A DNA stretch of 64,000 nucleotides from Anadara kagoshimensis (lineage: Eukaryota; Mollusca; Bivalvia; Arcoida; Arcidae): NCBI GenBank assembly GCA_021292105.1, contig CM037870.1:16857087-16921086 (forward strand). The letters are read 5' to 3'. Of the stretch, positions 2,791-57,450 are shown piece after piece (positions within the stretch are counted from its first letter, which is position 1; each line of letters starts with the position of its first letter). The notes beneath the pieces were generated by a model, which saw only the letters and a program-made list of their open reading frames with translations, searched no databases and was not told the origin of the DNA. The position numbers and the translations under genes were made by a program.

Positions 2791-3477
2791 CCATTCATTT
2801 ATATGTAACAAGAAGAACCATACACAGCGGTGAAACATGTTTTACAAATAATAAATTCAGTTATGTTTTAGAAAACAGTTTAACTTATTTTTAAGTTTTT
2901 AATATACATGTATATATATATATTATTTCAATCATTTATATTTATTTATCAGTCTTATTTTTTTATAAGTATTATTAATTTTATTTATATTTTATTTTTT
3001 ATGAAATTATTTAATTTTGATATGATTCACTTGAATTTGCACTCTGCCATCCATGGCTATAAATATAAATGCATGTGAATAACTTATTGTTTTTGTTGTA
3101 ATGATAATTAACGTTGCATCAGCAAACTTTCAGCCACTCACGACAAAACCAAGTCTATAAATCTCTAAAAGACAGCATAAGAATAAACCACTGTATATGC
3201 AAGATGTGCAAGTGTGTTTTGTGGTCTGTATTGTACTAGCACACTCAGGACGACTTTAAGGTGTTAGCTCCCTGAGTCAGTATGCTGCAGACATGCAAAC
3301 AATTCCACAGTCACATTTAAATTCTACCACTAGAGTGTAATCACCCACAAGCTATAGATATATAATTCACAATTTCTGTGTCTTGTCAAATTCAATCCTC
3401 ATACTAAGTATGAAGTTTGTTCTTTGAGTTCTTACATTCCAAAGGAAAAAACTTAATACCAGTAAAATATATTACCA
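2498..3477. other. AT-rich spacer with a (TA)n microsatellite
   Basis: A pure TA dinucleotide run is at about 2757-2787. The rest is AT-rich noncoding sequence with no gene or repeat family recognised. Confidence 0.5.
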
Positions 3478-19790: not shown

Positions 19791-20061
19791 GCAAATGGAA
19801 GACTATTTTTACTATTTCTAGAAAATTCAATCTATATACCTTTTGTATATAGTGACATTTTGTTTCAAGTGACAATAATTTGATAATAGTTGTTAAGATG
19901 AATTTTCTATTTAATGACCCCATCATAATTGACCTTTCTGCACTGGTCCCTCAGAAAGTCACATAAGACAGTATTTACTATAATATTCTTAAAGTGGTCT
20001 TTTAACACATATTGTAAATATGTTTCAATTGTATATTGTATTTTTTTAAAAACTGAAAATA
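19791..20061. other. Spacer before the minisatellite
   Basis: AT-rich sequence without recognised features. It shows no similarity to the 21-bp unit until about 20062. Confidence 0.4.
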
Positions 20062-22142
20062 TGAAGCATGTGTCTCAGTTAAGGAAGCATGTAGCTCAGT
20101 TGTGGAAGCATGTAGCTCAGTTGTGGAAGCATGTAGCTCAGTTGTGGAAGCATGTAGCTCAGTTGTGGAAGCATGTGTCTCAGTTGTGGAAGCATGTAGC
20201 TCAGTTGTGAAAGCATGTAGCTCAGTTGTGGAAGCATGTAGCTCAGTTGTGAAAGCATGTGTCTCAGTTGTGGAAGCATGTAGCTCAGTTGTGGAAGCAT
20301 GTAGCTCAGTTGTGAAAGCATGTAGCTCAGTTGTGAAAGCATGTGTCTCAGTTGTGGAAGCATGTAGCTCAGTTGTGGAAGCATGTAGCTCAGTTGTGAA
20401 AGCATGTGTCTCAGTTGTGGAAGCATGTAGCTCAGTTGTGAAAGCATGTAGCTCAGTTGTGAAAGCATGTGTCTCAGTTGTGGAAGCATGTAGCTCAGTT
20501 GTGGAAGCATGTAGCTCAGTTGTGAAAGCATGTAGCTCAGTTGTGGAAGCATGTGTTTCAGTTGTGGAAGCATGTAGCTCAGTTGTGGAAGCATGTAGCT
20601 CAGTTGTGGAAGCATGTGTTTCAGTTGTGAAAGCATGTAGCTCAGTTGTGAAAGCATGTGTTTCAGTTGTGAAAGCATGTAGCTCAGTTGTGGAAGCATG
20701 TAGCTCAGTTGTGGAAGCATGTGTTTCAGTTGTGAAAGCATGTAGCTCAGTTGTGGAAGCATGTGTTTCAGTTGTGAAAGCATGTAGCTCAGTTGTGAAA
20801 GCATGTGTTTCAGTTGTGAAAGCATGTAGCTCAGTTGTGAAAGCATGTGTTTCAGTTGTGAAAGCATGTAGCTCAGTTGTGAAAGCATGTAGCTCAGTTG
20901 TGAAAGCATGTAGCTCAGTTGTGGAAGCATGTGTTTCAGTTGTGAAAGCATGTAGCTCAGTTGTGGAAGCATGTAGCTCAGTTGTGGAAGCATGTAGCTC
21001 AGTTGTGGAAGCATGTAGCTCAGTTGTGGAAGCATGTGTTTCAGTTGTGGAAGCATGTAGCTCAGTTGTGGAAGCATTTAGCTCAGTTGTGGAAGCATGT
21101 GTTTCAGTTGTGGAAGCATGTAGCTCAGTTGTGAAAGCATGTAGCTCAGTTGTGGAAGCATGTAGCTCAGTTGTGGAAGCATGTAGCTCAGTTGTGAAAG
21201 CATGTGTCTCAGTTGTGGAAGCATGTAGCTCAGTTGTGAAAGCATGTAGCTCAGTTGTGAAAGCATGTGTCTCAGTTGTGGAAGCATGTAGCTCAGTTGT
21301 GGAAGCATGTAGCTCAGTTGTGAAAGCATGTAGCTCAGTTGTGGAAGCATGTGTTTCAGTTGTGGAAGCATGTAGCTCAGTTGTGGAAGCATGTAGCTCA
21401 GTTGTGGAAGCATGTGTTTCAGTTGTGGAAGCATGTAGCTCAGTTGTGGAAGCATGTGTTTCAGTTGTGAAAGCATGTAGCTCAGTTGTGAAAGCATGTA
21501 GCTCAGTTGTGGAAGCATGTGTTTCAGTTGTGAAAGCATGTAGCTCAGTTGTGAAAGCATGTGTTTCAGTTGTGAAAGCATGTAGCTCAGTTGTGGAAGC
21601 ATGTAGCTCAGTTGTGGAAGCATGTAGCTCAGTTGTGGAAGCATGTGTTTCAGTTGTGAAAGCATGTAGCTCAGTTGTGAAAGCATGTGTTTCAGTTGTG
21701 AAAGCATGTAGCTCAGTTGTGAAAGCATGTGTTTCAGTTGTGAAAGCATGTAGCTCAGTTGTGAAAGCATGTAGCTCAGTTGTGAAAGCATGTAGCTCAG
21801 TTGTGGAAGCATGTGTTTCAGTGGTGAAAGCATGTAGCTCAGTTGTGGAAGCATGTAGCTCAGTTGTGGAAGCATGTAGCTCAGTTGTGGAAGCATGTAG
21901 CTCAGTTGTGGAAGCATGTGTTTTAGTTGTGGAAGCATGTAGCTCAGTTGTGGAAGCATGTAGCTCAGTTGTGGAAGCATGTGTTTCAGTTGTGGAAGCA
22001 TGTAGCTCAGTTGTTAAAGCATGTAGCTCAGTTGTGGAAGCATGTAGCTCAGTTGTGGAAGCATGTAGCTCAGTTGTGAAAGCATGTAGCTCAGTTGTGA
22101 AAGCATGTAGCTCAGTTGTGAAAGCATGTAACTCAGTTGTGG
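20062..22142 (+). repeat. 21-bp minisatellite, about 99 units, each a tRNA D-arm/A-box
   Basis: Consensus unit GCATGTAGCTCAGTTGTGGAA. Units vary at two sites: GTAGCTC, GTGTCTC or GTGTTTC, and GTGGAA or GTGAAA. TAGCTCAGTTG...AGCATG is the D-arm and A-box of many tRNAs. The last unit (TAACTCAGTTGTGG, 22129-22142) is followed about 30 bases later by a B-box-like GGTTCATATCC (22174-22184) and a family G SINE body, so the array is an expansion within the SINE head. Because 21 is a multiple of three, long open frames exist on both strands. The plus-strand one has no ATG start, and none shows protein-like constraint. Unit variants are arranged in a higher-order pattern repeated about 0.80-0.88 kb apart. 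Confidence 0.9.
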
Positions 22143-22430
22143 AACAATGTACTCTAGATCCAAGACTATCATGGGTTCATATCCTGATGACCCTCAGTTA
22201 GTTACTTCATTTCACATTGCTGCTGGCCTGCCCAGTGTCAGCATAATGGACAAGAGGGGTGGCAAATCCTACACCTGCTGTATTGATGAGCTAGTAGTGC
22301 CTAGAAATTGCACAGAGTGTGCACTAGTACAAAGAAGACATATGCATAATACACAAATGTCACATTGTTACATCTGGGTAGCTTAGTGGGATCTTGTTGA
22401 CGCTCTAAGCACCAGAGTGCAAACATACAA
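22143..22430 (+). mobile_element. SINE family G body downstream of the minisatellite
   Basis: The B-box-like GGTTCATATCC at 22174-22184 precedes a body with GTCAGCATAATGGAC, GGGGTGG, GATGAGCTAG and GAGTGTGCACTAGTACAAAG, then GAAGACATATGCA. This order matches the SINE at 57071-57450 (ATCAGTATAATGGACTGGGG ... GAGTGCGCGCTAGTACAAGG). The expected tRNA-like head is replaced or extended by the 21-bp array. Confidence 0.7.
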
Positions 22431-22985
22431 GTCTAAAAGATACTAAATGAGTCCAATACAGTGAATTAATGAAAAAATCAAGAAGCACTTAGAAAACATC
22501 AATTAGCATGTAATCTCTGGAATTATGATATAGTTAGTTTAAAAATATAATTTAATCAAACATAGATGATAACGAGGCAGGTGCTTGTAGCTAAAATATG
22601 TACCATTATCTAATTGATTCAACATGCACAGCTCGTACTGCTGTAAACATACCATAGACAAAATTACGGTCCACAAACATGCACAACTATACATACTGTA
22701 CATACTGTAGACAAAATAGACTCCGGGGGGGGGGGGGGGGGGGGAGGGTGGGGGGGGCAAAAACTGCTGTGTATACATACCATTGACAAAATACATTGTT
22801 ACGTAGTTAGGGAAATGTACCAAAGAGGAGAGAGAGAAACAGTTCTCAAACTGCTATGTATAAATAACAAAGACAATATACATCGTAGCTCGGGGAAAAA
22901 TAATGAACTGCAAAAGCAGAAACATAAGTGGTAGGAAACTTTCCTGTTTTTGGATCTTCTAAACTATTTTGGGTTAGAAATTTTC
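22431..22985. other. Spacer with poly-G tract
   Basis: A run of about 20 G, then GGAGGGTGGGGGGG, lies at 22724-22757, flanked by repeated TACATACTGTA and CATACCATAGACAAAAT-like motifs at about 22650, 22705 and 22775. These suggest an old degenerate tandem repeat. No gene. Confidence 0.5.
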
Positions 22986-34687: not shown

Positions 34688-35735
34688 CCCGACTATAAAC
34701 ACCACAAGGAAACTGGACATTTGACGAGGAAGCTCCGGAGCAGAACAAAGGATATCCATACCAAGTTGCCGAACGTAACTAAGCAATTGGAATCCAGAAG
34801 TGGACACTTAGAGTGAATATTTTTACACAGAAAAAGTATATTTCACTTGGGATTAAGTGTTTGAAAAAATAGTTCCTGTACAGCTGTCAGGACTGTACAT
34901 TCAAAAAGAATGTTCAACGGTTGTGTTTAAGAATATCCAGAACTTTCATGGAAAACAGAACTGATCTGGAAAAGAGAACTTTATTAGCTGTGTTGTTGGA
35001 CTTCATCTAAAATACTTAAATATTCGGACATTTCCATGGAACACAAAGCCAGCTGTTTATCGACGGGAATATTTTCAAGAACTTAAAACTTTAATACTAT
35101 TAGAAAACATTAAATTTAAAAAAAAGAGCAACAATCAAATACAGATCAAGGACTTGTTTTAGGACATTTTTTGGGACATTATTATTGTTTATTTATTTGT
35201 TTCTAAATACTGGAACAGACATCCAGAGTAAGTAGAAAAACTTATTCTCTATAACATGCTATTATCTAATTGATTGTATTGTAAATGTTTATATTAGAAA
35301 TCTAGTTGTACAGCTATATAGTTAGTCAAAGGTCATACAGGTCAAATTTTCAATTTAATTATTTACTTAAATGAAAGTGAGATTCCGCTCATTAGCGACA
35401 AAGCTTTATCGCTCAATTTTTATTTTTATTTGATTTTTTTATCATATTTGTTTTTTTTTTTTTTTCTTAATTTCTGTAAATTGTTAGTGAATTCATAATA
35501 ACTTTATTTAATTTGTTTTATTAATTTTCGTTTGATCATAAATTTGTAAAGCTAACCAAGTTGCACATTTTTTTCCGTTTCGGTTGTCAATTTAAATTCA
35601 CGCGTCGTGTCGCTATATATTTAGCCATTTTCTTTATAACTTATAACTGGCTTATAGGCTTGACCACTTCGTTCTGTGTAGTATAGCACTTATTTGTATT
35701 TCTTTTTAGTTTTATCTTGTATATATAGTAGTATC
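34688..35735 (+). other. Long untranslated leader of the retrotransposon
   Basis: About 1.05 kb between the primer site and the gag start, without a substantial open frame. It presumably contains packaging or translation-control elements, but no motif can be named. Confidence 0.6.
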
Positions 35736-37004
35736 ATGTCTTTAAGAGAAAGGAGTATTGTGGTCTCGGGGCTCCCAAAGGGGTGGGACCAAGGGCAGGT
35801 TAATGATTTTATAAATGCAAATATTGATGAGTCTTTAGTTGAAAAAATCATACCAGGGAAAGATAAGATTTATGTAGTTCTAAAATCCGGGGACAAATTA
35901 GAAGATCACTGCCTGAAACTTTTGGACAAAAAAGTTCAAAATAAGAAGGTAAGTGCGAAAGCCCTTCCAATAGAATTGGAGATGGATCTTGCGGGACTTA
36001 TGTCCGTAGGTGTTGGGGCAACCGGATCAAATACAGCTGGAGATTCGGACCCAACTAGTAAAATCATAGAAACATTAAAGTCACTCCCTTCGGAGGAGAT
36101 AGCCAAGGTTCTTCAGGCTTTAGTCCCAGCTAAATCAATTGTAAGTGATGATGTCCAAACTGTAAATGAACCTCTGGACACACCAACCACAGAATCACCC
36201 GCAACCACACCTATGACCAGTTATCCAGCTGCCCTACCAAGAATATCCACCTTTTCTGGAGATTCTGTTGCAAAAGGGGAGGTAAGCTATAAGCATTGGG
36301 CTTACGAAATAAAGGCTTTGATTCGGGATGGTATTCATTCAGAAAAAATTATTTTACAATCAATTCGACGGAGCGTACGGGGCACAGCAGCGGATATTTT
36401 ATTGCATCTTGGCGAAAATATTGATGTTAATTCGTTAATTCAAAAATTTGAAAAGGTTTTTGGCGACATACTACCAACAGAATCATTGCTTGAACAATTT
36501 TATACTGCTCGGCAACATCCTCAGGAAAGCGTAGCTATGTGGGCTATGCGAATAGAAGAAATTGCAGGTAAGGTGAGTAAGAGCGATCCCTCATCAATGC
36601 AAAATTCGTCATACTCTACTATGATGAGGACAAAATTTTATTCTGGTATTTGTTCTACACATATAAAAAATGCTTTGAGGCATCGGTTTGAGGATGGCCA
36701 GTCATATGATGAACTGCTGGTTGCTGCCCGAAAAGCTGAATTGGAGCCGGGGAGTGATGCAAAACGTCACAGAGTCCATCAGGCTGTTGCAGACACTAGC
36801 AACAGGGAAGACGATAAACTAGAAAAGCTCCTTCAAAAGATGACCAAAATGGAGGAGAGATTAAAACAATTAGAGGTGACACCAAAAGAGAAAGTACCAA
36901 CACATTCGGAATTTCGAGGTTTATGTTATGGGTGTGGTGGACAGGGTCACAAAAGGTCAGAATGTTTAAACTACCAAAACCTAACACGAGGGGGCCGGCG
37001 TTAG
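35736..37004 (+). CDS. gag: Gag (capsid/nucleocapsid) of Ty3/Gypsy retrotransposon
   Basis: 422 residues from the ATG at 35736. An in-frame upstream ATG at 35694 would add 14 hydrophobic residues (YFFLVLSCIYSS) and is less likely to be used, because the frame MSLRERSIVVSGLPKG looks like a natural N-terminus. The N-terminal 80 residues (IVVSGLPKGW ... KIYVVLKSGDKL) recall the RRM-like fold at the start of PNMA-type and some Ty3 Gag proteins. A Thr/Pro/Ser linker (about residues 135-180) precedes the capsid region (SYKHWAYEIKALIRDGIH ... LLEQFYTARQHPQESVAMWA), typical of Ty3/Gypsy Gag. One zinc knuckle, C-x2-C-x4-H-x4-C, is at residues 397-410 and would bind RNA. It assembles virus-like particles. 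A slippery site follows the knuckle directly. Confidence 0.93.
   Translation: MSLRERSIVVSGLPKGWDQGQVNDFINANIDESLVEKIIPGKDKIYVVLKSGDKLEDHCLKLLDKKVQNKKVSAKALPIELEMDLAGLMSVGVGATGSNTAGDSDPTSKIIETLKSLPSEEIAKVLQALVPAKSIVSDDVQTVNEPLDTPTTESPATTPMTSYPAALPRISTFSGDSVAKGEVSYKHWAYEIKALIRDGIHSEKIILQSIRRSVRGTAADILLHLGENIDVNSLIQKFEKVFGDILPTESLLEQFYTARQHPQESVAMWAMRIEEIAGKVSKSDPSSMQNSSYSTMMRTKFYSGICSTHIKNALRHRFEDGQSYDELLVAARKAELEPGSDAKRHRVHQAVADTSNREDDKLEKLLQKMTKMEERLKQLEVTPKEKVPTHSEFRGLCYGCGGQGHKRSECLNYQNLTRGGRR
36965..36971 (+). promoter_or_regulatory. Predicted -1 ribosomal frameshift site TTTAAAC
   Basis: The heptamer reads T TTA AAC in the gag frame, the X XXY YYZ form for simultaneous -1 slippage, and pol lies in exactly the -1 frame. 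It comes immediately after the last zinc-knuckle Cys codon. Downstream, GGGGC (36991-36995) can pair with GCCCC (37021-37025), a possible stimulatory stem. The pol frame is open from 36818, so the overlap with gag is 187 bases. Confidence 0.75.
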
Positions 37005-40000
37005 GTATTAATTCTCTGCAGCCCCAAAATACAATAGATAAATTAGTAGGGAAGGCAAATGAAACTGCAGTAATAATTGAAGGTAAGTACTGTACTGCTC
37101 TATTAGACACGGGGAGTATGGTAAGTACATTAAGTGAAACTCTGGTAAAACAACTTAAATTACAAATTTACCCGCTTGACGGACTTATTAAAATTGAGGG
37201 AGCAGGTGGCCATTCTTTACCATATTTGGGTTATGCAGAAGCTAAATTTGGACTTCCTGGAGTTCAAACTCTGAAGCTAAATGCATTATTTTTAGTAGTT
37301 CCGGATACAAATTATCATAGGAAAGTCTCCGTATTAATTGGAACCAATATTTTACAAGAATTAAGTTTAGACAAAAGTTTAAATCTACCCACTGCTTGGA
37401 GAACTGTGTCAGATAGCATATTAAAACAACAAAAGGTAATTGCTGAAGGTGATAAATGGGGTACAATTAAGTCAACGAAAGCTATGATGGTTCCACCGGG
37501 GAAGTCTATTATTCATGGAATGACTAGAGCTACGTCATTTATATCAATGAAGATAAATGCTATGGTTGAGGAGGTAAGTGGACAGCCATTACCTGGTGGT
37601 ATTTTGATAACACCTGGTTTACTAAATTTAAATCCTGGTCAAACTACAAAACGTGTACCTATTGAGGTAAGAAATCACTCAACTAAGTCGGTAATAATAC
37701 CAGCTAACAGTACTATTGGAATGTTATATCAAGTGACCACTATACCAACAAACAATAATGGTAATGTAGCCCCAAGGGATTTTAAAGAAATAAACGACAT
37801 GATTTCAGAACACTTAACTCCGCCTCAGATTCATGAAGTTAAAGATCTACTTCTTAAATGGAAATGTGTATTCTCCCAACATGACTTGGATTTGGGATGC
37901 ACTAATATGGTGAAACATCGCATTAGATTAAAAGATGACATACCTTTCAAAGAGAGACACCGGCGCATACCACCGGCAATGGTAGACGAAGTTAGAAGTC
38001 ACTTGCAAGAAATGTTAGACCTAGGAGTTATAAGACGGTCTGAAAGCCCATACGCTTCCAGTATTGTCCTGGTTCGTAAAAAAGACAATAGTTTGAGGTT
38101 CTGTATTGACCTAAGGAAATTGAATATGAAAACTGTGAAAGACTCATTTGCTTTACCCCGTATTGATGAGACGCTGGATGCACTATGTGGAGCTAAATGG
38201 TTCAGCACTTTGGACTTGAAGGCATCTTACTGGCAAGTTGAGATAGCAGAAGAAGATAAGCATAAAACAGCATTTACTGTTGGGCCTTTAGGATTTTTTG
38301 AAAGTAACAGAATGTGTTTTGGATTAACCAATGCACCTTCAACAATGCAGCGATTAATGCAGTCATGCATGGGTGATCTCCATTTGACAGAATGCTTATT
38401 GTACTTGGACGATATTATTGTCTATAGCAAAACGTATGAAGAGCACATTCACAGACTTGAAGCTATATTTCAGCGGTTAAAGGAAGCCAACCTCAAGCTT
38501 AAACCATCAAAATGCAGTTTATTCCAAAAGAAGATAAAATTTTTGGGCCATGTTGTGTCGGAAGAAGGAGTATCAACGGACCCAGATAAAATAGAAGCAG
38601 TTAAAAACTGGCCAGTTCCAAAGTCAGTTTCAGAAGTACAGAGTTTTCTTGGTTTTGTTGGTTTTTATCGCAGATTTATTAAGGATTTTTCCAAAATTGC
38701 CAAACCTTTGTGTGAACTAACTAGAGGACCAGCCGGTAGGCGAAAAAAAGGTCGGAAGGCACATACTAATACCACATTTTGTTGGGGTGATCAGCAACAG
38801 CGTGCCTTTGAACATCTGAAAGAATGCTGCATTAATCCACCAGTTCTTGCCTTTGCTGATTTATCAAAACCATTTATTATACATACAGATGCAAGTTTAG
38901 ATGCACTTGGAGTAATTTTGTACCAGGAGTTTGATGGTCAAGAAAAAGTAATAGCTTATGCGAGCAGGAGCCTAACTCCTGCAGAGCGTAACTATCCTAC
39001 TCACAAATTAGAATTTTTAGCCTTGAAGTGGGCCGTTACAGATAAATTCCATGATTATTTGTATGGTAATTCATTTGTTGTTAAAACTGATAATAACCCT
39101 TTAACATATGTCCTAACGACTGCAAAGCTAGATGCTACGGGTCAGAGATGGGTTGCTCAATTGGCCAATTATAATTTTACAATCCAATATAAATCGGGGA
39201 GTTCAAACAAAGATGCTGATGGTTTGTCTAGAATTAAATGGCCACAAAATCATATGAAAACAATAGATGACAGATCTATTAAAGCAGTATTGTCTGCCGG
39301 ACAGGTAGAATGTTATGTGGAAACAGTGGCAATGTCCCAGAAAGTTGTTTCACAGATTGAAGACACCTTACCAGGCGCAAGTTTAGAATACGACTGGGCC
39401 AATTTACAGCACCAGGATAGGAATCTACATCATGTATTTCGGTTGTTGAATGGAGAAGTTAAAGATATTTCCAAACAAAGTTGGGAATGTAATATGTTCC
39501 AAAGACAGAAGAAGAATATCTACATCCAGGAGGGAATAATTGTTAGAAAACGCCGACAGGGCGATATAGAAAGTACTCAACTTGTGCTGCCTCAGGAATT
39601 TAGACAGAAAGTTATAATGGGATGTCATGACCAAATTGGTCATATGGGCCGGGAAAGAAGTGTAAATTTGTTACAAGAAAGATTTTATTGGCCTGGCATG
39701 ATAAAGCAAATGACAGAACATGTGACCAATTGTCTCAGATGTATACAACGGAAAACCCTACCTAACCAAAGAGCACCATTAGTTAATATTTCCACTGTTC
39801 ATCCATTGGAAATGATATGTATAGACTTTTTAACTTTGGAGCCATCAAAGGGTAACATTGAAAACATATTAGTTATTACGGACCATTTCTCTAGATATGC
39901 CCAGGCAATACCAACCAAAAACCAAACAGCAAAAACAGTAGCCAGAGTACTTTATGACCAATTTATTGTACATTATGGGTTTCCAGCCACAATTCACAGC

Positions 40001-40930
40001 GATCAGGGGAGGAATTTTGAGAGTGCCACCATCAAAGAATTATGTGAGATAGCTGGTATTAAGAAATCCCGCACTACACCATACCATCCAATGGGAAATG
40101 GACAATGTGAACGGTTTAATAGAACCTTATTAGACATGCTAGGCACTTTGGAACCAGCTCAAAAGACTGATTGGAAGACCTATGTCCCGTGTTTAGTACA
40201 TGCTTATAACTGTACTAAGCATGAAACTACTGGATATAGCCCGTTCTATCTAATGTTTGGACGCCATCCTAGGCTTGCCATTGATGTTCTGATGGGAATT
40301 AATCTCAGAGAGGACGAGAAAACAGAGTCATACACGTCATATATCAGTAAACTAAGAGAACGTTTAGATTATGCTTACAATCTCGCGTCAGCAAACATGA
40401 AAAAGGCCCAAAGAAAACAAAAATCGCATTATGATTTAAAATCTAGGGGTGCTAGTATTAACATCGGTGACAGGGTATTAGTAAGGAATGTTGGACTTTT
40501 GGGGAAACATAAAATTGCAGACCGGTGGCAAAGTGAGGTATATGTTGTTACCGCGCAACCAAATACAGATATACCAGTTTTTCACATTAAGAAAGAAGAT
40601 GGTGCTGGCAAAGTTCGCACACTCCACAGGAACATGTTACTTCCCATTAGTTCATTACCCATTGAAAATTCAAACAGGCGAGCAGGGATAGGAAGTCTTG
40701 AGAACAAAAATGAGATTGCGCCGGATGCTGAAAATGAATTGAGAGAGGTGGAGGATGAATCTAGATCAGATTCAGATAGTAAGGAAAGTCAGGGACCCTT
40801 ATCTCATTCTCATGATCAGCAGCGTTCTAAACCAATCCCAGCTCCACGTCGGCAAATAAATACGAATGTCACAGCTGAACCCACAGCGAGGACAAGACGT
40901 CCACCTGAGAGACTTGGAAACAATATTTAG
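36971..40930 (+). CDS. pol: Pol polyprotein: protease, reverse transcriptase, RNase H, integrase
   Basis: Expressed as a Gag-Pol fusion by -1 frameshift. The first ATG in this frame (36923) lies inside gag and is not needed. Numbering residues from 36923, the aspartic protease motif LLDTGS is at 60-65. Reverse transcriptase has its first catalytic Asp in TLDLKASYW (Asp431) and YLDD at 494-497. RNase H starts near IHTDAS (Asp656) and includes the typical LEFLALKWAV and TDNNPLTY. Integrase has a zinc-binding HHCC domain (His902, His907, Cys937, Cys940) and a DDE triad Asp968, Asp1027, Glu1063 with the 35-residue D-E spacing. A GPY/F-type region (ADRWQSEVYVV) follows, and an acidic then Pro/Arg-rich C-terminal tail ends in RRPPERLGNNI. 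No stop or frameshift is visible in about 1320 codons, and all catalytic residues are present. Confidence 0.96.
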   Translation, partial: LPKPNTRGPALGINSLQPQNTIDKLVGKANETAVIIEGKYCTALLDTGSMVSTLSETLVKQLKLQIYPLDGLIKIEGAGGHSLPYLGYAEAKFGLPGVQTLKLNALFLVVPDTNYHRKVSVLIGTNILQELSLDKSLNLPTAWRTVSDSILKQQKVIAEGDKWGTIKSTKAMMVPPGKSIIHGMTRATSFISMKINAMVEEVSGQPLPGGILITPGLLNLNPGQTTKRVPIEVRNHSTKSVIIPANSTIGMLYQVTTIPTNNNGNVAPRDFKEINDMISEHLTPPQIHEVKDLLLKWKCVFSQHDLDLGCTNMVKHRIRLKDDIPFKERHRRIPPAMVDEVRSHLQEMLDLGVIRRSESPYASSIVLVRKKDNSLRFCIDLRKLNMKTVKDSFALPRIDETLDALCGAKWFSTLDLKASYWQVEIAEEDKHKTAFTVGPLGFFESNRMCFGLTNAPSTMQRLMQSCMGDLHLTECLLYLDDIIVYSKTYEEHIHRLEAIFQRLKEANLKLKPSKCSLFQKKIKFLGHVVSEEGVSTDPDKIEAVKNWPVPKSVSEVQSFLGFVGFYRRFIKDFSKIAKPLCELTRGPAGRRKKGRKAHTNTTFCWGDQQQRAFEHLKECCINPPVLAFADLSKPFIIHTDASLDALGVILYQEFDGQEKVIAYASRSLTPAERNYPTHKLEFLALKWAVTDKFHDYLYGNSFVVKTDNNPLTYVLTTAKLDATGQRWVAQLANYNFTIQYKSGSSNKDADGLSRIKWPQNHMKTIDDRSIKAVLSAGQVECYVETVAMSQKVVSQIEDTLPGASLEYDWANLQHQDRNLHHVFRLLNGEVKDISKQSWECNMFQRQKKNIYIQEGIIVRKRRQGDIESTQLVLPQEFRQKVIMGCHDQIGHMGRERSVNLLQERFYWPGMIKQMTEHVTNCLRCIQRKTLPNQRAPLVNISTVHPLEMICIDFLTLEPSKGNIENILVITDHFSRYAQAIPTKNQTAKTVARVLYDQFIVHYGFPATIHSDQGRNFESATIKELCEIAGIKKSRTTPYHPMGNGQCERFNRTLLDMLGTLEPAQKTDWKTYVPCLVHAYNCTKHETTGYSPFYLMFGRHPRLAIDVLMGINLREDEKTESYTSYISKLRERLDYAYNLASANMKKAQRKQKSHYDLKSRGASINIGDRVLVRNVGLLGKHKIADRWQSEVYVVTAQPNTDIPVFHIKKEDGAGKVRTLHRNMLLPISSLPIENSNRRAGIGSLENKNEIAPDAENELREVEDESRSDSDSKESQGPLSHSHDQQRSKPIPAPRRQINTNVTAEPTARTRRPPERLGNNI

Positions 40931-57070: not shown

Positions 57071-57450
57071 AACAAGGCCGTGGTGGCCTAATGGATAAGA
57101 CGTCAGTCTTCAAATCCAGGGTCTCTCACCACTGTGAGTTCGAGTCCCGCTCGGACCACATGTGGGAAAGTGAATTTTCCTTGCCCTTGGCCTTTACTGA
57201 TTCACCTGGTATCAGTATAATGGACTGGGGGAGTGGTACGCTTGTCTGCGGCGTACTGACTCTGTGAGCTAGCATGTTAAAGTCGCCCTGAGTGCGCGCT
57301 AGTACAAGGCAGACCATACAACACACTCGCACTTCACATGCATACACCAAATTGTTCATAGATTAATCCATAGAGATTAATAAAAAAAAGTTCTTGTCTC
57401 GAATAGCTGAAAAATTGCTGATGCGACGTTAAGCAACAGTCAACCAACCA
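57071..57450 (+). mobile_element. SINE family G, full-length
   Basis: tRNA-like head GGCCGTGGTGGCCTAATGGA (A-box) and GAGTTCGAGTCCCGC (B-box). The body holds GTATCAGTATAATGGACTGG, GGCGTACTGACTCTGTGAGC and GAGTGCGCGCTAGTACAAGG. The 3' end is GATGCGACGTTAAGCAACAG then TCAACCAACC, a recognisable SINE terminus. A related body follows the 21-bp minisatellite at 22143. Confidence 0.85.

What the first reader, a model, noticed from the sequence alone, without database searches (positions are those of the whole stretch)
20062..22184. A tRNA D-arm/A-box amplified about 99-fold in front of a single B-box
The 21-bp unit (TAGCTCAGTTG...AAGCATG) is what the D-arm and A-box of a tRNA-type promoter look like. 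The final unit is spaced correctly (about 30 bases) from a B-box-like GGTTCATATCC, and a family G SINE body follows. The simplest reading is that the A-box half of a SINE's Pol III promoter expanded into a 2.1-kb minisatellite with the same polarity. Such an array could be a cluster of TFIIIC-like half-sites, a replication or chromatin-boundary element, or simply slippage debris. I know of no described system of tandem A-boxes of this size.
Basis: partly seen in the sequence, partly recalled or inferred. Interest (0 to 1): 0.75.

Follow-up and report, generated by a model that had tools for sequence, protein, structure and literature searches.

The report
SINE-head minisatellite of 99 A-boxes
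A 2.1-kb stretch repeats the first 21 bases of a tRNA-headed mobile element (a SINE) 99 times in front of one old copy of that element; similar smaller and larger arrays occur elsewhere in the same genome, and nothing found here suggests that they have a function.

Summary
Window 20063-22141 holds 99 head-to-tail copies of a 21-bp unit, running in the same direction into a degenerate B-box and a SINE body. The genome itself was available (1.1 Gb) and settles the origin. The unit GTGGAAGCATGTAGCTCAGTT equals nt 1-21 of a tRNA-headed SINE whose 29-nt head has 230 places within 3 mismatches. The window copy aligns with a full-length SINE at 76% identity. The array is far more uniform than its old SINE (7 private changes in 2079 bp), so it was expanded or homogenised later at the DNA level, partly in a block repeated about 0.8 kb apart. 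It is not unique. The genome has a 15-unit array of the same 21-mer (C19), 102 x 42 bp (C7) and 22 x 20 bp (C11) arrays with heads like those of a second SINE family, and cases of 2-17 copies. Of 9 other arrays scanned, 8 lack a recognisable B-box, which speaks against a TFIIIC role. SINE-derived minisatellites and tRNA-region satellites are known; repeated amplification of the D-arm/A-box piece is a new variant. Whether the D-arm is a true hotspot is untested: the control searches did not complete.

The parts
20063..22141 (+). Tandem array, 99 units of 21 bp (GAAGCATGTAGCTCAGTTGTG in this phase; GTGGAAGCATGTAGCTCAGTT in SINE phase)
20063..20083 (+). First unit, diverged at the edge (TGTCTCAG, TTAAG); no recognisable GTG start in front of it
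20347..20629 (+). 283-bp block repeated exactly at 21145-21427 (lag 798 bp): large-segment duplication inside the array
   Evidence: longest exact match 283 bp against at most 249 in 200 shuffles of unit order
20736..20940 (+). 205-bp block repeated exactly at 21618-21822 (lag 882 bp)
   Evidence: shorter than the shuffle maximum of 249, so not significant alone
22118..22484 (+). Full-length old SINE copy: nt 1-373 of the family, its first 21 nt lying in the last array unit
   Evidence: 267 identities, 83 mismatches against L036 (76.3%); 20 of 40 other rows align from within the last unit
22129..22139 (+). Last A-box-like element (TAACTCAGTTG)
22142..22162 (+). Junction: GAACAATGTACTCTAGATCCA, either the SINE anticodon region or a decayed 100th unit
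   Evidence: its similarity to the unit is reached by 3.8% of 8836 window 21-mers; ambiguous
22174..22184 (+). B-box-like GGTTCATATCC (1 mismatch)
20054..20066 (+). Candidate target-site duplication, 11 of 13 with 22470-22482 (weak)
   Evidence: reached by 20 of 1000 random places
57076..57445 (+). Related SINE body with a different (Arg-like, by eye) single head and no array
3063..3339 (-). Third related SINE body, head missing, no array

Best explanation
This is a minisatellite born from the 5' end of a tRNA-headed SINE. An ordinary SINE (GTGGAAGCATG-TAGCTCAGTT-GGTAGAGC... + body + GATAA tail) inserted here long ago. Its first 21 nt were duplicated once. The duplicate then grew by replication slippage and unequal exchange, unit by unit and at least once as a block, to 99 units kept nearly identical by turnover. 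Shown: the unit equals SINE nt 1-21; the array is continuous with a full-length old SINE; it is much more uniform than that SINE; it contains a block duplication; intermediates with 2 and 15 units, and arrays with heads like those of a second SINE family, exist in the same genome. Inferred: the slippage/exchange steps, their order, and the absence of function.
For: 16 of 17 single-hit loci fetched (L032-L048, all but L046) read by eye as SINE heads beginning with this unit, and 11 of 16 have GTGG as the first four bases, after flanks that mostly differ. The 29-nt head has 230 places within 3 mismatches, reversed control 0 (at least two of the 230 lie in or at the end of the C14 and C19 arrays). 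Full-length alignment of 22118-22484 to L036. A DNA search of 22121-22430 scored 40 of 514 candidates and gave 40 rows other than itself, at 70-77% identity, 20 of them starting in the last unit. Intermediates: C19 with 14.7 units running straight into GGTAGAGC, plus 2-unit heads; C18 with a 27-bp doubled head. Second family: C7 102 x 42 bp, C10 a partial 22-bp duplicate, C18 two copies of a unit that contains what looks like host flank, i.e. a DNA-level event. Array uniformity and block.
Against: The Rfam tRNA model does not score the head, but it also misses the head at 57076 and gives only 16.8 bits, E 1, to a good SINE head, so this test is weak. The junction 22142-22162 is ambiguous. The target-site duplication is weak, and 7 ordinary copies of this family checked showed no clear long one either. 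The first units of C14 and C19 start at about nt 4 and nt 8, not nt 1 (by eye), which a plain DNA duplication of nt 1-21 does not predict without later decay or loss. The array was read from one assembly only.
Confidence: 0.87

Rival explanations
1. The seed duplication was made during retrotransposition: the reverse transcriptase reached the RNA 5' end, jumped back to about nt 21 and copied the 5' end again, so that each extra unit starts exactly at SINE nt 1 and the first is truncated. Later growth was still at the DNA level.
For: At C14, C19 and C18:43494640 the repeated piece starts again at GTGG, the probable RNA 5' end; first units start at about nt 4, nt 8 and nt 1 (by eye); at C10 the second-family duplicate also starts at CCACTGCGG after a truncated first unit. 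[quoted passage not shown]
Against: At C7 and C18:38431487 the unit contains what looks like host flank, and at C6 and C3:896578 the duplicate does not start at the SINE 5' end: those look like DNA-level events. The edge units may simply have decayed.
Confidence: 0.3
2. A functional cluster of A-box half-sites: the array binds TFIIIC-like factors and acts as a chromatin boundary, Pol III promoter block or replication element.
For: Same polarity; 69 of 99 units keep the A-box core; periods of 21 and 42 bp equal two and four helical turns; arrays of about 100 copies arose twice. The doubled head at C18:43494640 sits on a SINE whose B-box reads intact by eye (GGTTCGAATCC).
Against: In human TFIIIC the B-box gives high affinity and the A-box is low-affinity; ETC sites carry B-boxes (passages). 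The one B-box here has a mismatch, and 30 of 99 A-box cores are changed. Of 8 further D-arm arrays scanned, 1 has a B-box within 1 mismatch in 120 bases (two of the eight show no SINE at all), and the C7 array has none within 2 mismatches in the 350 bases scanned; only 59 exact TAGCTCAG cores remain among its about 102 units. The C10, C18 and C19 loci were not scanned. Purifying selection could not be tested.
Confidence: 0.05
3. Coincidence: an unrelated minisatellite that happens to lie next to a SINE.
For: In the window alone the other two related SINE bodies have another head or none.
Against: Genome-wide the unit is the SINE's own 5' end, in register.
Confidence: 0.02
4. A protein-coding repeat: the 21-bp period keeps long frames open (714, 724, 332 and 311 codons).
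For: Open frames.
Against: Any 21-bp repeat without a stop in a frame is open; no protein at E <= 0.001 among 7994 scored candidates (one of the four frames searched); neighbours are SINE and AT-rich sequence.
Confidence: 0.02
5. Assembly artefact: the copy number is inflated or the array is misassembled.
For: Only one assembly seen; some places in this genome come in look-alike pairs.
Against: Unit variants form a structured order with a 283-bp exact block, and arrays exist at other loci.
Confidence: 0.05

Closest known systems
Minisatellites expanded inside SINEs (mouse B1 (GGCAGA)n; human Alu-derived minisatellites)
   Same: Short piece of a SINE duplicated and expanded into a VNTR (tables and passages of PMC9659126 and PMC6947457; the original papers were not read).
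   Different: Here the piece is the 5'-terminal 21 nt with the A-box of a tRNA-type SINE, expanded 99-fold, and D-arm pieces have been amplified at several loci with heads of two SINE families.
tRNA-region satellites: Hy/Pol III of Hydromantes, Satellite 1 of Xenopus
   Same: Tandem repeats derived from the tRNA-related region of SINE-like elements (table in PMC9659126).
   Different: Those are listed as satellite families; here it is a 2.1-kb single-locus array of an A-box-only fragment. Monomer details of those satellites were not checked.
PcH-sat of the limpet Patella caerulea, from a Nin-SINE
   Same: Mollusc tandem repeat derived from a SINE (abstract and passages of PMC11121367).
   Different: 179-bp mainly pericentromeric satellite, about 10% of the genome, from the 3' part of Nin-SINE, lacking box A and box B.
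Haber-Louis type minisatellite birth (short flanking repeats, slippage, then exchange)
   Same: Model described in PMC6947457 (passage) fits seed plus expansion.
   Different: That model uses flanking repeats of 5-10 bp; here only about 1 nt if the seed was exactly nt 1-21.
Extra-TFIIIC (ETC) sites
   Same: TFIIIC-motif sequence outside tRNA genes.
   Different: ETC sites carry B-boxes (PMC12409998 passage); here only A-boxes are multiplied.

Membership tests
tRNA-headed SINE (element behind the array) | Dispersed copies sharing head and body | tested here: met
   230 places of the head, control 0; 40 other rows for the body, 40 of 514 candidates scored
tRNA-headed SINE (element behind the array) | A-box and B-box at tRNA-like spacing | tested here: met
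   T of last A-box to B-box start 45 nt; B-box with 1 mismatch; 30-67 bp given for tRNA genes in PMC11811891
tRNA-headed SINE (element behind the array) | tRNA covariance-model score | tested here: inconclusive
   No hit; control heads also nil or 16.8 bits
tRNA-headed SINE (element behind the array) | Target-site duplications | tested here: inconclusive
   11 of 13, reached by 20 of 1000 random places; 7 ordinary copies unclear too
SINE-derived minisatellite | Short unit, tandem, tens of copies at one locus | tested here: met
   99 x 21 bp
SINE-derived minisatellite | Unit sequence equals part of a SINE | tested here: met
   SINE nt 1-21
SINE-derived minisatellite | Length variation between individuals | not testable with these tools
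   One assembly only
TFIIIC/ETC site cluster | B-box that matches the consensus | tested here: inconclusive
   One B-box with 1 mismatch for 99 A-boxes
TFIIIC/ETC site cluster | TFIIIC occupancy | not testable with these tools
   No ChIP data
Satellite DNA family | Same repeat in long arrays at many loci | tested here: not met
   The two-unit junction of this 21-mer occurs only at C14 and in the C19 cluster at <=3 mismatches (51 of 51 places)

The most novel reading that the evidence does not exclude
The D-arm/A-box end of tRNA-headed SINEs is a genuine hotspot of minisatellite birth in this genome (for instance because Pol III factors parked on the head stall replication and provoke slippage). 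SINE heads then repeatedly turn into arrays of up to about 100 A-boxes, often with a unit of 20-22 bp (or 42 bp) that keeps the A-boxes near one face of the helix. Such arrays may titrate or organise the Pol III machinery.
Probability: 0.15. Interest if true: 0.75.

Novelty: new variant of a known kind. Interest (0 to 1): 0.5.

Why it matters
It turns a curiosity into a countable series (1, 2, 3, 4, 15, 17, 22, 99, 102 copies of D-arm pieces) within a single genome, which allows study of how minisatellites are born from mobile-element promoters and whether internal Pol III promoter elements are prone to it. If the hotspot is real, it would link transcription-factor occupancy of SINE heads to repeat instability. 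If not, it is still a clean case of a SINE becoming a minisatellite.

Tried and rejected
Tried without result: ARAGORN (0 tRNAs); Rfam at gathering threshold (0); exact unit in viral contigs (0) and an extended unit in genome contigs (0); SINE body in plasmids (0); protein search of one open frame (none). Paper text: TGGAAGCATGTAGCTCAGTTGG and two body strings are in 0 papers; searches for A-box/minisatellite/SINE, tandem A-box and doubled-SINE papers listed nothing of this kind (listings only). My first genome pattern was mis-spaced, so its 0 hits say nothing.

Rejected: coding VNTR; coincidence; a window-only view that related copies have unrelated heads, overturned by the genome. Results against my reading: of 8 further D-arm arrays fetched from the listed places, two (L089, 9 x 29 bp; L092, 5 x 23 bp) show no SINE sequence next to them, and L088 (17 x 46 bp) has no SINE body after it, though its unit resembles the second family's D and anticodon arms (all by eye). 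So not every D-arm-like array is visibly SINE-derived. One search listed only its first 100 of 247 places (ending within C14). Its pattern demanded the D-arm, so it cannot show a preference for it. The two intended controls (tandem body motif, tandem B-box) were asked and never answered. The count of second-family single heads did not complete either.

Full report
What is there. Positions 20063-22141 hold 99 units of GAAGCATGTAGCTCAGTTGTG with no indels. Seventeen of the 21 positions are nearly invariant. Four carry shared variants (positions 1, 10, 11, 12), and only seven private changes exist in 2079 bp. 69 units have the core TAGCTCAG and 30 do not. Inside the array a 283-bp block is repeated exactly 798 bp further on (longest in 200 shuffles of unit order: 249), and a 205-bp block 882 bp further on, which alone is within the shuffles. 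Growth by a large block has therefore been added to unit-by-unit growth.

What follows it. The stretch after the array is a SINE. A related copy at 57076-57445 finds it at E 8e-9, and a third body lies at 3063-3339 on the other strand. In the window alone those copies have another head or none, so the decisive evidence had to come from the genome, which is held (G000, 1,115,223,567 bases, 36 contigs; window = C14:16857087-16921086).

Origin of the unit. The 20-mer AAGCATGTAGCTCAGTTGTG with up to 2 mismatches has 143 + 44 places, control 0 + 1 (the list was cut within C3 of the 2-mismatch places). Seventeen places outside the two arrays, and the C19 array, were fetched. 16 of the 17 (all but L046) read by eye as tRNA-headed SINEs that start (GTGG)AAGCATGTAGCTCAGTTG and continue into a tRNA-like stretch and, in most, the same body; 11 of 16 have exactly GTGG in front. 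I aligned eight of them with L036: three at 92-99% identity, five at 75-84%. The 29-nt head has 230 places within 3 mismatches, control 0. The unit, read as GTGGAAGCATGTAGCTCAGTT, is thus nt 1-21 of the SINE. The window copy 22118-22484 aligns with nt 1-373 of L036 at 76.3%. A DNA search with 22121-22430 scored 40 of 514 candidates: all 40 rows other than itself lie at 70-77% identity, 20 of them starting within the last array unit. The SINE is old, and the array is much more uniform than its SINE, so the array was expanded or homogenised long after insertion (inference from these numbers).

Relatives of the array. The two-unit junction within 3 mismatches occurs 51 times, only at C14 (the window) and in a C19 cluster. 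In C19 a 14.7-unit array runs straight into GGTAGAGC, and two further heads have two units. A gapped pattern adds C18:43494640, a 27-bp doubled head on a copy that looks young. A second SINE family of the window (head CCACTGYGGTAGCTCAGTTGG, other body) also shows doubled heads: 6 exact hits, control 0. Three of these hits lie in one array of 102 x 42 bp (L086 1985-6225) whose unit is the SINE head plus what looks like host flank, with 59 exact TAGCTCAG cores in the locus; another hit (C18:38431487) is a two-copy unit that also includes such flank. A general pattern for two D-arms 6-36 bases apart has 219 + 28 places, control 0, of which 100 were listed. From those I fetched eight more loci: 22 x 20 bp (C11), 17 x 46 (C7), 9 x 29 and 5 x 23 (no SINE visible), 4 x 30, 3 x 21, 2.5 x 20 and 2 x 21. 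One of these eight has a B-box within 1 mismatch in 120 bases after the last D-arm, and the C7 102-unit array has none within 2 mismatches in the 350 bases scanned. I did not scan the C10, C18 and C19 loci; by eye the C18:43494640 copy has an intact B-box.

How it most likely arose. Seed: one extra copy of the 5' end. Two routes are open. DNA slippage is the simpler reading where the unit contains flank (C7, C18:38431487) or starts inside the head (C6, C3:896578). Re-copying of the RNA 5' end during retrotransposition is suggested where the inner unit starts exactly at SINE nt 1 after a shortened first unit (C19, C10, perhaps C14). Growth: slippage, then unequal exchange, as in the model described in PMC6947457 (passage). 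The growth steps are inferred.

Function. None is shown. [quoted passage not shown] Ninety-nine A-boxes with one imperfect B-box are therefore a poor TFIIIC target, and 8 of 9 other arrays scanned have no B-box. The match of 21 and 42 bp with two and four helical turns may be chance; other loci have 20, 22, 23, 27, 29, 30 and 46 bp.

Known or new. Minisatellites from SINEs and satellites from SINE tRNA regions are established (tables in PMC9659126 and PMC6947457; PcH-sat). I found no description of repeated amplification of the D-arm/A-box piece; the searches were on an open-licence library only, seen as listings. I call it a new variant of a known kind. Whether the D-arm is preferred over other SINE pieces is not known, because the control searches did not complete.

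Noticed in passing
L086:1985-6225 (C7:5333484-5337724): 102 x 42-bp array of the head of a second SINE family plus apparent host flank, larger than the one reported; no B-box in the 350 bases scanned at its end.
   Followed up: partly
L086:6351-7469: A second 29-bp minisatellite (about 40 copies, also reported with period 193) directly beside the C7 A-box array.
   Followed up: no
window 5454(-), 42721(-), 47120(-), 48891(+), 51889(-), 59662(-): Six copies of the second tRNA-headed SINE family (ACCACTGCGGTAGCTCAGTTGG...); no two A-box cores lie side by side outside the array in the list.
   Followed up: partly
window 35682-40930 (+): Two long overlapping open frames that look by eye like gag and pol of a Ty3/gypsy-type element (not searched).
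   Followed up: no
C2:34390151/35327669; C7:24351215/25260290; C3:1733250/2388500; C10:20897184/21539934: Look-alike pairs of places 0.6-0.9 Mb apart on one contig; the 60-90 bases beside the hits that I read look nearly identical for C3, C7 and C10, but an ungapped comparison over longer stretches gave only 253 of 490 (C7) and 233 of 451 (C10), so their nature (segmental duplication, haplotypes) is open.
   Followed up: partly
L089 (C2:34389800-34390800) and L092 (C3:2629350-2630000): D-arm-like arrays (9 x 29 bp and 5 x 23 bp) without visible SINE sequence beside them; origin unexplained.
   Followed up: partly
window 22725-22757: A run of 33 nearly pure G just downstream of the SINE.
   Followed up: no
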